Source of the DNA: Craspedostauros australis
Taxonomy: Eukaryota; Bacillariophyta; Bacillariophyceae; Mastogloiales; Achnanthaceae
DNA: 64,000 nt
Assembly: GCA_026770025.1 (NCBI GenBank)
Contig: JAMXDE010000034.1
Span: 62,001-126,000 of the forward strand
Reading direction: 5' to 3'
Shown: positions 1,128 through 5,700 of the stretch, piece after piece
Numbering within the stretch: the first letter of the stretch is position 1
Layout of the letters: each line of letters begins with the position of its first letter
The notes under the pieces: generated by a model
Seen by the model: the letters and a program-made list of their open reading frames with translations, nothing else
Told to the model about the DNA's origin: nothing
Databases searched by the model: none
Made by a program: the position numbers and the translations under genes

Positions 1128-1132
1128 AAAAA
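1128..1132 (-). terminator. candidate Pol III T5 terminator of the permuted tRNA-Cys gene
   Basis: A run of five T on the minus strand begins five bases after the last base of the tRNA 5' half (1137). This is the usual eukaryotic RNA polymerase III stop and is placed where the trailer of the permuted gene should end. Confidence 0.6.
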
Positions 1133-1136
1133 GAAA

Positions 1137-1214
1137 CTGCAATCGAACGCTCTACCACTGAGCTATATTGACTTGGGCAGTCAACAACGTGAGTCGAACA
1201 CGTGACCATTCGAA
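1137..1214 (-). tRNA. circularly permuted tRNA-Cys(GCA) gene: 3' half, 6-nt linker, 5' half
   Basis: Read on the minus strand, the 3' half comes first (1214 down to 1179), then a 6-nt linker (1178-1173), then the 5' half (1172 down to 1137). The 5' half gives acceptor GTCAATA, TA, D stem GCTC/GAGC with loop AGTGGTA, G26, anticodon-stem TTCGA and loop start TTGCAG, so the anticodon is GCA. The 3' half gives anticodon-stem TCGAA, variable loop TGGTC, T stem ACGTG/CACGT with loop TTCGACT, acceptor TGTTGAC and base 73 = T. The halves complement each other: 27-31 with 39-43 is 5 of 5 Watson-Crick, and the acceptor is 7 of 7 with one G-T pair. U73 and GCA are the known identity elements of tRNA-Cys. 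T8-A14, G15-C48, G18-G19 and T54-T55-C56 are all present. Exact cut points around position 37/38 are inferred. Permuted tRNA genes are known from the red alga Cyanidioschyzon, prasinophyte green algae and some archaea. Confidence 0.9.
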
Positions 1215-1823
1215 TGGTGCTTTGCGTGTGATACTACGGATAAAATTGACGTTTAAATACTCTCAACTCAACGGAAGAACGCACAAATTGTTTCGAATCA
1301 TCCCAGACCTTCATCCATCGGAAATACAGACTCTGTGGAACACGGTTAGATCAAACAGACTTGACCAGAGAATAGTAGGAATCCATAATATTCTATGATT
1401 TCACATTGTTCTCTGTAGAGAGCATGTGGCTGCTTAATTTTCTCGACTGCTTCCTCACCACGTATGGTATTATCGTCAAGTTCCAATGGCGTGGTCCGTG
1501 CCGGAGACATCTCTGCACGAGGATAGCCGGCACCCTGCAATGCTTCCGAAAGTTGCTTTGCAGACGCCGGCGCACGCCAAGCAAAGGCATCAAACAAACA
1601 ACCCCCCAGAAACTTGAGAGGAAGGTCCATCAATGGAGTGCAACCTTCTGTGGAGGCGAGGTGGTTGCGGATGTGAGACTAACCAGGGGGCGCACGATAC
1701 GCGTTTTGGTAACACTCACGAGAACAGCCAGTTCTGCGTGGCACAGAAGCAACGAGAAAGGCCTCGAGAGAAAACAAGGAAAAATAAATTATGAACTTAA
1801 GTTCTGATAATTCCGCAACAACA
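1215..1823. other. spacer between the two tRNA genes, with one weak minus-strand frame
   Basis: Positions 1215-1226 are the leader of the permuted tRNA gene and contain GCAAAG, which can pair with its trailer. On the minus strand, 1633-1346 is an open frame of 95 codons that starts MMDLPLKFLGG and contains ELDDNTIRGEEAVEKIKQ. Its composition is protein-like, but I recognise no family and the opposite strand (1406-1807) is open over the same bases. I see nothing else. Confidence 0.3.
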
Positions 1824-1896
1824 GCCTAATTAGCTCAGTCGGCAGAGCGCACGACTCTTAATCGTGTGGTCGAGGGTTCGATCCCCTCATTGGGTG
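1824..1896 (+). tRNA. tRNA-Lys(CTT)
   Basis: This is a standard 73-nt cloverleaf. Acceptor GCCTAAT pairs with ATTGGGT (two G-T pairs), the D stem is GCTC/GAGC, and the anticodon stem is CACGA/TCGTG with loop CTCTTAA, so the anticodon is CTT (lysine). The T stem is GAGGG/CCCTC with loop TTCGATC, and the discriminator is G. There is no intron and no encoded CCA. A run of four T lies at about 1904-1907. It lies 610 bases from the permuted tRNA-Cys on the opposite strand. Confidence 0.97.
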
Positions 1897-2750
1897 CGTT
1901 GACGTTTTGCCTCTGGCGACCATCGGCGCTGCACCAGCCTCGCCAGTCCTCATTTGATTTTGCCATCGTGCCTCTTTGAATGCTGTCTTCTGTGCTGCTC
2001 TACTCGAGGGTGCTCCACTATTCTTTTCTTGCAGCGGATGTTGACAGATATCACATCTCCAGTCAACCCACCAAAATGCAGAATCGGCGCACGCTTTAGC
2101 ACGGCAGAGCTAAGATTCTATCTGCAGATCGGACAATCCGCTCGCGAGGACTATCACCTTGGACTCCGTGCTGTATCCAGATCCTTCCACGTCTCCGCTC
2201 TTCTGTGGACTGTCTGTGTTCATAATCCTTCTTCGCTGCGATCATTTGATTCGTTGCTTGCGTGGAAGATGTGATCATGAGCCTCGACTCCACGAGCACA
2301 TCGATTCGGCACAGCAGGCCATAGTAGTCGTACGAGTATCATAGTCGTCGCGATGGCGACCAACGATGCACGATACATGAGGTGCCGCAAACTGCACAGA
2401 GACCGGTCACCACAAGGACGAAAGAGGGAAGCGTGTCATGTGCACGTTCCAACAAATGCCAACGTGTTGTGCGTCGCTCGCATTAATTAACTGAGAAGAC
2501 TGCGACATTTCGAGTGTCTTTCGCCGAGTTGCTGAAAACTGGTGATCAAGACGGCGACAAGAGTTTGGCGCCACGATGAGCATCCACGCTCGTACTTTGC
2601 TCCCTGTCTATTATACCGCACTCCAACACACGCTCCACATCACATCACATCACAATCGCAACCAGCATGAAGCTCGAGCCCGATTCCAAGTCTGACTTTG
2701 AAGGATAAAGCTCAAGATCAACCTCAAGATAAAGAGAAGGAGGCACGAGG
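1897..2750. other. intergenic, 5' flank of the first LRR gene
   Basis: I see no gene. Short overlapping frames on both strands have no motif. Just upstream of the LRR start the DNA turns rich in C and A, with a CACAT-type direct repeat at about 2636-2653. This resembles the C/A-rich leaders seen before several other starts in this window. Confidence 0.5.
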
Positions 2751-5700
2751 ATGGACAGCCCTCCTTCCTCCCATGATGCGACGCAACGCAATGACAGTAA
2801 CAACGACGTCGAAAGTGCAGCCGAGACCAGCGTTGACCACGATGTTCTGGAAGCCGTAGATCTGTTGAACGAGGTGCATAGACAGAGGCATGGAAAGATC
2901 CATGGGCGCACCGAGTTGCGAGTAGATGACCGTGGTGCTGGCTTTGATCACGACGATGCTGATGCCATTGACGACGATGCAGCCGTCAAGGATGCAGCAA
3001 TCATGGAGAAGGAGGTTACCAAGTCCAGAACAACAAGTACAAGTGCGGTCGATGCGGCTGCTCGAAGCAAGCATGCTGTCGGAGCGAGAGCACGGCAAGG
3101 AACACGATCCGCCAACGAAAAGATTATTTCACGCCCACTCATGTTGACATCCGCATCTGGAACATCGCTTCCAATGAAGCAGGGCAAAGCAAGCTGCAAG
3201 CCAGGTTCCACGGCTGGCACAGCACGATCGTTGCGACCGACCATGCGGATGGAGATCAAACTGGCGAACGATATAAATCCGGAACGTTCTGCAGATTTGT
3301 TGATGCCTCAGGTGCTTGCATCAAACCAAGCAAACCAATCAAATGCGCTTCGCAATACAAGTCGAGCAAGCCGGGCGGGTGGATCGGACTGCAACAATGA
3401 ACTCATCGATCTTAGCGATCACACTGGCGATCACATCGGCGATCAGACCACGGATGGTGTCAATGGAGATGCGGGCGATCACCCAAATTCTCCTTTTGCC
3501 CAACAACAACAACTGCAACCACAACCACAACCACAACAATTGCCGTCTGGAGACTCCAATGGTACATCACCTCACCAAGCGAATGCTCATGTCAGTACGC
3601 ACCACGCTTCACCCCGTGAGCCATTGTTTGAAGCCACCTTGGTCGTGGATGATCCGGATGACATTGAAAGGCAAGCGGAAGAGCGCCTTGAGGAGCTGGA
3701 ACTCCGCGCCCTTCGTTTGGAAACAGAACGAGCAAGGTTGCTGGGCCAGGATCGTGCACATCTTCATGCGCGCGACTCAAGCAACGTTCCGACGCTGAAC
3801 ACGTCCGCCTCATTTTCTGCCGACCCCAGCTCCACCGGGATGCTCTTTGCGTCCAGCGAATATGCTGCTCGTACTTCTCACGAGTCACCGGGACAGTCGC
3901 AGTCGCAATCACAGCCGCAGTCGCAATCACAGTCGCAACCACAACATGGACTTGGCAACGACGCCGGCACCGCCGATTTCAAAGGCAATAGCAGCGACTT
4001 CATAGCAAGCAACCAAAAAACGATCATTGCAAAGGCAGAGGTCATGTCTCCGGAGAACAAGGTGTGCGGCTTCACTCGGAACTCCTTGGTCTTGATTCTT
4101 GGTTTAACCTTGCTACTCATCGCGGGCGCGGTGGTTGGAATCGTTCTCGGCACGCAGGACAGTAGTAGCAATAGCAAGAGTTCCAGCAGCAATACCAGCA
4201 ACGAAGATGGCCGCGAGGAGCCAACTATGACCATTTCCTCGCCGTCCCCAAGCGACATGCCCGCGATGAATCCTGCGTCATCCGCGACACCGACACAAAA
4301 ACTGACACCGGCTCCAACTTCGTTGCCAACGGTCGACACTGAAACCTTGCTGGAGGAAAGGTATCAGCAGCTCCTTGATATCATGATCGCCGACGAGTCG
4401 CCCAACGCCATCGAAATCATTTCAGATTCGTCTTCAGCAAACAGCAGAGCCATTCGGTGGATGGCGCGAGACGATCCGGCCCAGCTCGACTTCTCCACAT
4501 TCCCTCGCCGCAGGCTCAAAGAACGATACGTGATGGCCTTGTTCTACCTCCACCATCGTGGCAATCAATGGTTTACGAGAGTTGGCTGGATGTCGGAATT
4601 GGATATTTGCTTGTGGGAGGGACTGTCCTGCATCGGTGCCAGCCAAACTATTTCTCAAATCGAGGCCGGTACGTTCCATTCTGTGCGACATCTCCTCTAT
4701 TCTACGCGCAAGTGCAAGTGCTCCGATTCTTTCATTTTTCGCTTTCCATCTCACGCATTCCCACACGTTTCCCATCTTGCACTCCCAACCAACAGGCAGC
4801 AATTCTCTGCGCAACAACCTGCTGACAGAAATAGGGACGCTTGCTGATCTAAGAACGCTCGATGCGAGTAAGTTACGATAATTGTCGATGGAGTCTGACA
4901 GAGTCTGCACACCAGCTATACGCACCAACTACAAACCATGCACGTGATGTCATCAGCGGATCGTAGCCTCTCATGAACCTCACCATCGTTGCCTTTTATT
5001 CATTCTCACTGCGATTGCTTTCTCATTCACCCATCCATTCACGCATCTACCTCAGGCGACAATCTGCTAGGTGGCACACTCCCTTCGGAACTTGGCATGC
5101 TGTCCGAATTACGCAAGGTTGAGTTATGTAAGTAGCGCAAGCGGCAGGAGGAGACTAAACGATTGGCGGATGCACTCCATCGATCTCTGTCCTTGCTTTC
5201 GGTTGTTTCCACACAAAAAGAGTGAGAACGGACGCTGCATCACGATTCTCGACGAGTACGATCTCTCAATCCTCACAGAATCAGGACCGGGGACTCCGCT
5301 TCATGTTGCCGCTTCATTGCCTTGCGTCTTGCGATATCGATCGATGCAGGGTCATGCGAGCGGGAATGCTCTCTCGAGGTCTTCAAACTCACCGCTTCCC
5401 CCTCACCATCACGTACTTTGATGACACGAAATGACACGAACCGCAACATCGTGAAATTCCACGTTATCCTCATCTGTCGCTTTGCTCGTACCACTCCAAA
5501 AAGCAGATGATTGCGGACTCACCGGAACAATACCCACTGAGATTGGTAGTCTCATAGACCTGAACTATCTTGATTTAGGTAAGCCTTGCATGCGGCGACG
5601 GGAAAGATGGCGACGAGATTGGTCTGCACATCGTGTGGCGCATATCTCCCGCAATACGCGTAGAAGACATCGCTCGTCTCAACAGCATGCGATACGTTTC

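What the first reader, a model, noticed from the sequence alone, without database searches (positions are those of the whole stretch)
1137..1214. Circularly permuted tRNA-Cys(GCA) gene
Read on the minus strand, a complete tRNA-Cys is present but its halves are swapped: anticodon-stem 3' strand to base 73 first (1214-1179), a 6-nt linker (1178-1173), then base 1 to the anticodon (1172-1137). Acceptor (7 bp), anticodon (5 bp) and T (5 bp) stems all pair, and U73 and GCA are tRNA-Cys identity elements. Expression would need circularisation of the precursor and a cut in the linker. Such genes are known from Cyanidioschyzon, prasinophytes and a few archaea. I am not aware of a description in diatoms.
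Basis: partly seen in the sequence, partly recalled or inferred. Interest (0 to 1): 0.95.

Follow-up and report, generated by a model that had tools for sequence, protein, structure and literature searches.

The report
Swapped-halves tRNA-Cys gene, probably diatom
An alga, almost certainly a diatom, carries three copies of a cysteine transfer-RNA gene whose two halves are in the wrong order, and no ordinary version was found in its nuclear DNA, so its cells probably make this essential RNA by first closing it into a circle.

Summary
On the minus strand, 1214-1137 holds a complete tRNA-Cys(GCA) in permuted order: bases 38-73, a 6-nt linker, bases 1-37. All 21 cloverleaf pairs form; no hit in 1500 resampled windows reaches 20. 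The joined halves align without gaps to tRNA-Cys.

The same 74.8-Mb genome has two more copies, an inverted pair on another contig. Halves are 35-36 of 36 identical; linkers (2/6) and upstream flanks (13-14/40) have diverged. Assembly error is thus very unlikely, and selection on the permuted form likely. Searches for an ordinary gene found only these loci and one ordinary tRNA-Cys on the plastid contig, so these genes are probably the only source of cytosolic tRNA-Cys.

Each copy has an AT-rich box upstream, a T5 run and a splice-site-like helix at 37/38. The genome has intron-bearing tRNA-Tyr genes and a tRNA-splicing endonuclease domain.

This is a type II permuted tRNA gene, known for Cys(GCA) in prasinophytes. 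I saw no report in diatoms. Expression is untested.

The parts
1179..1214 (-). 3' half of tRNA-Cys, bases 38-73 (U73 discriminator included), placed first in the gene; carries the B box
   Evidence: 36 of 36 identical in all three copies
1173..1178 (-). 6-nt intervening linker joining base 73 to base 1; to be cut out at the acceptor end (inferred)
   Evidence: same length but 2/6 identity in each pair of copies
1137..1172 (-). 5' half of tRNA-Cys, bases 1-37, with A box and anticodon GCA
   Evidence: 35-36 of 36 identical between copies, the one change being A5 to G opposite U68
1218..1220 (-). leader GCA (-6 to -4) that can pair with U33, G34, C35: central helix of a bulge-helix-bulge-like motif; the fourth pair, U32 with -3, is U.C here and U.G in the other two copies
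   Evidence: energies
1252..1259 (-). TATTTAAA, AT-rich box starting 45 nt upstream of base 38 (promoter role inferred)
   Evidence: AT run of 6 or more starting at -50 to -30 in 3 of 3 permuted genes and, counted by eye from the table, in 10 of 19 upstream regions of ordinary tRNA genes
1128..1132 (-). T5 run just after the 5' half, likely RNA polymerase III terminator (role inferred)
   Evidence: CTTTTT after all three permuted genes; also after the three tRNA-Tyr genes

Best explanation
The locus is one of three functional, circularly permuted nuclear genes for cytosolic tRNA-Cys(GCA), type II (junction 37/38), in an alga that is almost certainly a diatom. Proposed route: RNA polymerase III starts downstream of an AT-rich box and stops at the T run, giving leader, 3' half, linker, 5' half, trailer (inferred). 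The precursor folds with the anticodon stem as its outer helix and the acceptor stem as a hairpin closed by the linker (the pairs are there in sequence). The tRNA-splicing endonuclease cuts off leader and trailer at 37/38 as it would an intron, and a ligase joins the ends into a circle (inferred). RNase P and tRNase Z cut out the 6-nt linker and CCA is added (inferred). Shown here: the permuted order, complete pairing, three diverged loci with conserved halves, no ordinary nuclear gene found, and an endonuclease domain and intron-bearing tRNA-Tyr genes in the same genome.
For: Complete cloverleaf in permuted order, unmatched in 1500 resampled windows. Joined sequence is tRNA-Cys. Two further copies. 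Across copies the halves are 36/36 and 35-36/36 identical, while the linker between them is 2/6 and the leader from -60 to -21 is 13-14/40. Gene conversion alone would not spare the linker in the middle, so selection on the halves is the simpler reading. The joined 72-mer finds only the six half-matches of these three loci. A Cys 5'-half pattern with up to 3 mismatches gives 10 hits, of which the 3 exact ones are these loci and none of the other 7 is a tRNA-Cys. A pattern for the middle of an ordinary tRNA-Cys gives 14 hits; the only tRNA-Cys among them lies on the plastid contig C90, which also shows that the search can find one. Three tRNA-Tyr genes have 19-20-nt introns in the anticodon loop, and a PF01974 endonuclease domain is present.
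Against: No RNA data. The central helix of the splice motif is 3 of 4 pairs in the window copy (4 of 4 in the others). The intended structure is less stable than the predicted minimum by 5.6 to 7.8 kcal/mol in the three copies. GCA also occurs just upstream of several ordinary tRNA genes, so its conservation is not specific to splicing. An AT box stands before only about half of the ordinary tRNA genes looked at. Of two PF01974 matches only one is over the cut-off, and it covers profile positions 7-50 of 85; a second frame of that locus, which I guessed to carry the rest, did not match. No RtcB ligase was found, and the test for a Trl1-type ligase was uninformative because its control rang nowhere. 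The search for an ordinary gene cannot see a tRNA-Cys that is missing from the assembly or very diverged.
Confidence: 0.88

Rival explanations
1. Permuted pseudogenes: rearranged remains of a tandem or inverted pair of ordinary tRNA-Cys genes, not expressed, while an ordinary gene supplies tRNA-Cys.
For: Several tRNA genes of this genome lie as inverted pairs (Lys, Thr, Trp), which could breed rearrangements. The assembly may be incomplete.
Against: All 21 pairs intact, with near-identical halves beside diverged linker and flanks in three loci; no ordinary nuclear gene found; each copy keeps an AT box and a T5 run.
Confidence: 0.07
2. A repeat or mobile element carrying tRNA-like halves (for example a tRNA-derived SINE), with the order of halves a by-product of its structure.
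For: More than one copy, on two contigs.
Against: Only three copies found. Similarity between the window copy and the others is limited to 107 nt around the gene, with no shared body in the 3-kb loci; the pair on C2 shares only 177-187 nt.
Confidence: 0.02
3. Assembly artefact or chance resemblance.
For: Any single unusual order in an assembly invites this (a general caution; no call supports it here).
Against: The order repeats at three loci on two contigs with different linkers and flanks; no hit in 1500 resampled windows reaches 20 pairs.
Confidence: 0.01

Closest known systems
Permuted tRNA-Cys(GCA) of the prasinophytes Ostreococcus lucimarinus, O. tauri and Micromonas pusilla (Table 1 of Soma 2014, PMC3978253, read; first described by Maruyama et al. 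2010, not held)
   Same: Same isoacceptor, same order, same junction 37/38 (type II), no further intron.
   Different: Linker is 6 nt here against 26, 38 and 12 in that table; three gene copies here; host is almost certainly a diatom, not a green alga. Their letters were not available, so sequence kinship is untested.
[quoted passage not shown]
   Same: Upstream TATA-like sequence, T-run after the 5' half, processing through a circle shown there experimentally.
   Different: C. merolae has several junction types and 11 genes, none for Cys in the table. Here one isoacceptor was found; other isoacceptors were not searched exhaustively.
Permuted tRNA-Ser genes of chlorarachniophyte nucleomorphs (Bigelowiella natans, Amorphochlora amoebiformis)
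   Same: Type II junction with a 5-nt linker (B. natans); occur in a secondary alga (passages of PMC4494063).
   Different: They lie in the relict green-algal nucleus, not in the host's own nucleus.
Permuted tRNA genes of the green alga Auxenochlorella (PMC12633428)
   Same: Missed by a first tRNAscan-SE search and found afterwards (passages).
   Different: Green alga; the isoacceptors are in a figure that I did not see.

Membership tests
Circularly permuted tRNA gene, type II | Sequence of the 3' half lies upstream of the 5' half on the same strand | tested here: met
   also in the two other copies
Circularly permuted tRNA gene, type II | Halves together give a complete tRNA with eukaryotic consensus bases (U8, G18G19, U33, UUC in the T loop) | tested here: met
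Circularly permuted tRNA gene, type II | 3'-terminal CCA not encoded (eukaryotic cases) | tested here: inconclusive
   Base 73 is followed by GCC in the window copy and CTC in L003, but the linker of L002 happens to begin with CCA
Circularly permuted tRNA gene, type II | Intervening sequence between base 73 and base 1, 1-74 nt in known cases | tested here: met
   6 nt in all three copies; range
Circularly permuted tRNA gene, type II | Bulge-helix-bulge motif at the 37/38 junction | tested here: inconclusive
   Central helix 3/4 pairs in the window copy and 4/4 in the others, against 3/4 in each of the genome's three tRNA-Tyr introns; but it is not the predicted minimum-energy fold
Circularly permuted tRNA gene, type II | AT-rich or TATA-like sequence upstream of the 3' half and T-run after the 5' half | tested here: met
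   As sequence only: AT-rich box at -45, -42 and -39 in the three copies and T5 after each; their function was not tested
Circularly permuted tRNA gene, type II | Circular RNA intermediate and mature, aminoacylated tRNA | not testable with these tools
   needs RNA from the organism
tRNA-splicing machinery in the same genome | tRNA intron endonuclease and tRNA introns | tested here: met
   PF01974 at C12 (over cut-off, partial) and C14 (below cut-off); three tRNA-Tyr genes with introns
tRNA-splicing machinery in the same genome | tRNA ligase | tested here: inconclusive
   RtcB not found; PF09511 not found but its control rang nowhere
Ordinary tRNA-Cys gene | 5' half followed by 3' half, with or without an intron | tested here: not met

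The most novel reading that the evidence does not exclude
All cytosolic cysteine decoding in this diatom, and perhaps in a wider diatom clade, passes through a circular tRNA precursor. The gene shares isoacceptor and junction with prasinophyte permuted Cys genes because it came from a green alga by endosymbiotic or lateral transfer and then replaced the ordinary gene.
Probability: 0.2. Interest if true: 0.85.

Novelty: new member of a known kind. Interest (0 to 1): 0.66.

Why it matters
In the review read here, permuted tRNA genes are listed for one red alga, four prasinophytes, one nucleomorph and one archaeon; a diatom would add a new major lineage, with the gene in the host's own nucleus. 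Three copies and no ordinary alternative would make an essential tRNA depend on RNA circularisation, which can be tested by sequencing. The isoacceptor shared with prasinophytes makes the choice between independent origin and gene transfer answerable by surveying diatom genomes. It also shows that standard tRNA scans can make a genome seem to lack tRNA-Cys when the gene is only rearranged.

Tried and rejected
Rfam tRNA search of the genome as proof of absence: rejected, because only 63 of 1610 candidates were scored. Doubled-segment ARAGORN scan as a detector of permuted genes: it missed the known locus and gave 7 other calls, so I replaced it by a direct pairing scan. That scan of 89 fetched, partly overlapping loci (256,863 bases) found the Cys loci (L002 is not printed because its halves equal those of the window copy) and two hits at 18 of 21 pairs, in L015 and L018, the latter using the T arm of an ordinary tRNA-Lys. 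The control rate at 18 pairs is 172 in 1500 windows, so about half a hit was expected and I take neither as a gene. Initiator tRNA-Met, permuted in several algae, is ordinary at the three places found (loci L090 and L092, which cover all three, read). Patterns in viral contigs (two scans) and prokaryotic genomes (one scan) gave nothing. Precursor folding energy gave no support. A PDB search with the endonuclease piece gave one weak match, an EndA-like tRNA-splicing endonuclease (E 0.001). Mitochondrial tRNA-Cys was not looked for. Species identification was not reached.

Full report
Observation. Reading the minus strand gives, in order, TTCGAATGGTCACGTGTTCGACTCACGTTGTTGACT (1214-1179), GCCCAA (1178-1173) and GTCAATATAGCTCAGTGGTAGAGCGTTCGATTGCAG (1172-1137). 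A scan for permuted cloverleaves, anchored only on a T-loop motif, found this as the only place in the window with 18 or more of 21 pairs; it has 21, G-U included. In 1500 windows resampled from the dinucleotide frequencies there were 454 hits with 17 pairs, 172 with 18, 32 with 19 and none with 20 or 21.

What it encodes. Joined in mature order, the halves make a 72-nt RNA that ARAGORN names tRNA-Cys(gca). U73 and GCA, identity elements of tRNA-Cys (recalled), are present. In its genomic order the locus is not called by ARAGORN or by Rfam's tRNA model at gathering score; both call only the ordinary tRNA-Lys at 1824 in this window.

More copies. The window is part of a 74.8-Mb assembly of 90 contigs. 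Two more copies lie on contig C2 about 4.2 kb apart in opposite orientation. Position by position, the 3' halves are 36/36 identical in all three comparisons and the 5' halves 36/36, 35/36 and 35/36. The single difference, A5 to G in L003, keeps a pair with U68 as G-U. The linkers are all 6 nt but 2/6 identical; that of L002 happens to begin with CCA. Leaders agree at 14, 13 and 14 of 40 from -60 to -21 and at 10, 9 and 12 of 20 from -20 to -1. Trailers agree at 14, 14 and 18 of 20 up to +20 and, beyond, at 15 and 16 of 40 between the window and the C2 copies and 38 of 40 between the two C2 copies. So the C2 pair shares a later duplication and its split from the window copy is older. Identical halves on both sides of a diverged linker point to selection on the RNA rather than recent copying.

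Is there an ordinary gene? The joined 72-mer finds only the six half-matches of the three loci. A pattern for the Cys 5' half, which would also catch an intron-bearing ordinary gene, gives 10 hits with up to 3 mismatches: the three exact ones are these loci, two are one tRNA-Asn present on contigs C83 and C89, and in the five others ARAGORN finds no tRNA. A pattern for the middle of an ordinary tRNA-Cys gives 14 hits. ARAGORN was run on 7 of their 14 loci and the tRNA-Cys model R1 on all 14: one is a tRNA-Cys, on C90; the others are Phe, Lys and Arg genes, except the C8 hit, which neither program calls. C90 carries psbV and frames that I read as plastid dnaB and clpC; C83 and C89 carry frames that I read as mitochondrial nad genes. 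No ordinary nuclear tRNA-Cys gene was found. The Rfam search scored only 63 of 1610 candidates and cannot show absence. A gene missing from the assembly or very diverged is not excluded.

The host. PF03842 silicon-transporter matches are abundant (88 matches). The plastid PsbV matches best the PDB entries 8iwh, 6jlu, 6j3y, 7vd5 and 8j5k, the first five of 16, which I recall as diatom photosystem II. A diatom is therefore very likely; the species was not identified.

Expression signals. Each permuted gene has an AT-rich box starting 45, 42 or 39 nt upstream of base 38. A comparable run (6 or more A/T starting at about -50 to -30) stands before 10 of the 19 ordinary tRNA upstream regions examined, as I count them. 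Each has CTTTTT within 10 nt after base 37, and CTTTTT also follows the three tRNA-Tyr genes. With A and B boxes in reversed order, an upstream box would have to do more of the work, as discussed for C. merolae (section 5 of PMC3978253); this is inference here.

Processing. A tRNA-Tyr 5'-half pattern gives 23 hits, the three best-ranked of which are tRNA-Tyr genes with 19-20-nt introns. I read these at the canonical 37/38; ARAGORN prints the boundary one base later. So the organism should splice at that place. PF01974 domains occur at C12 (44.6 bits over profile positions 7-50 of 85, cut-off 27) and, weakly, at C14 (25.2 bits and 21.7, below cut-off). In the register expected for a 37/38 splice site, bases 32-35 pair with leader -3 to -6 at 3 of 4 positions in the window copy and 4 of 4 in the other two, against 3 of 4 in each tRNA-Tyr intron. 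Against this: the intended fold is not the minimum-energy one (-19.0 against -26.8, -20.6 against -26.9, -17.6 against -23.2 kcal/mol); precursors do not fold strikingly better than shuffles; and GCA also stands just upstream of several ordinary tRNA genes. No RtcB was found, and the PF09511 search is uninformative. [quoted passage not shown]

Comparison with the known. Table 1 of Soma 2014 (PMC3978253; abstract, sections 5, 6 and 8 and part 1 of 2 of section 4 read) lists 34 permuted genes. Among them are type II Cys(GCA) genes in O. lucimarinus, O. tauri and M. pusilla with linkers of 26, 38 and 12 nt. The present gene has the same plan with a 6-nt linker. Later reports seen as passages: nucleomorph genes (PMC4494063) and Auxenochlorella (PMC12633428).

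Literature on diatoms. The searches were: permuted tRNA alone (45 papers, 40 listed); with diatom (6, 5 listed); permuted, tRNA and Phaeodactylum tricornutum (10, 9 listed); permuted-tRNA terms with stramenopile (17, 16 listed); PlantRNA, tRNA genes and diatom (5, 4 listed); permuted, tRNA genes and Thalassiosira (4, 3 listed); and tRNA-Cys and diatom terms (18, 15 listed). I looked at passages of all five papers listed and of PMC8007984; apart from these, the Soma review and PMC4494063, I saw only listings. None of what I saw reports a permuted tRNA gene in a diatom. Maruyama et al. 2010 is not held, and subscription journals are mostly outside the library.

Verdict. A real, very probably functional, type II permuted tRNA-Cys gene family, a new member of a known kind in what appears to be a new lineage. 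Expression and the circular intermediate remain to be shown.

Noticed in passing
own genome, 88 matches on many contigs; one at C32:150184-151785, outside the window: Silicon-transporter domain PF03842 matches 88 places (some are pieces of one gene); 27 score over 800 bits, 25 of these without a stop. This looks like a large expansion.
   Followed up: no
own genome, e.g. L016/L017 on C5, C2:1329433 and 1334321, C12:1445528 and 1451022, L065-L067 on C4: Several ordinary tRNA genes lie as inverted pairs about 0.7 to 10 kb apart (Lys, Thr, Trp, Phe), as does the Cys pair on C2.
   Followed up: partly
L080, L081, L082: Three tRNA-Tyr(GTA) genes with 19-20-nt introns of varied sequence in the anticodon loop.
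   Followed up: yes
L002, linker after base 73: The 6-nt linker of this copy begins with CCA directly after U73, unlike the other two; probably chance.
   Followed up: no
L048:2477-3286: Between the two inverted Cys copies lies an array with a 102-nt period over about 810 nt (six overlapping 300-nt copies, 66-82% to the reference), followed by a repeat at 3371-3532 that I read as possibly coding.
   Followed up: no
window 1824-1897: Ordinary tRNA-Lys(CTT) gene about 610 bases from the permuted gene, on the opposite strand.
   Followed up: no
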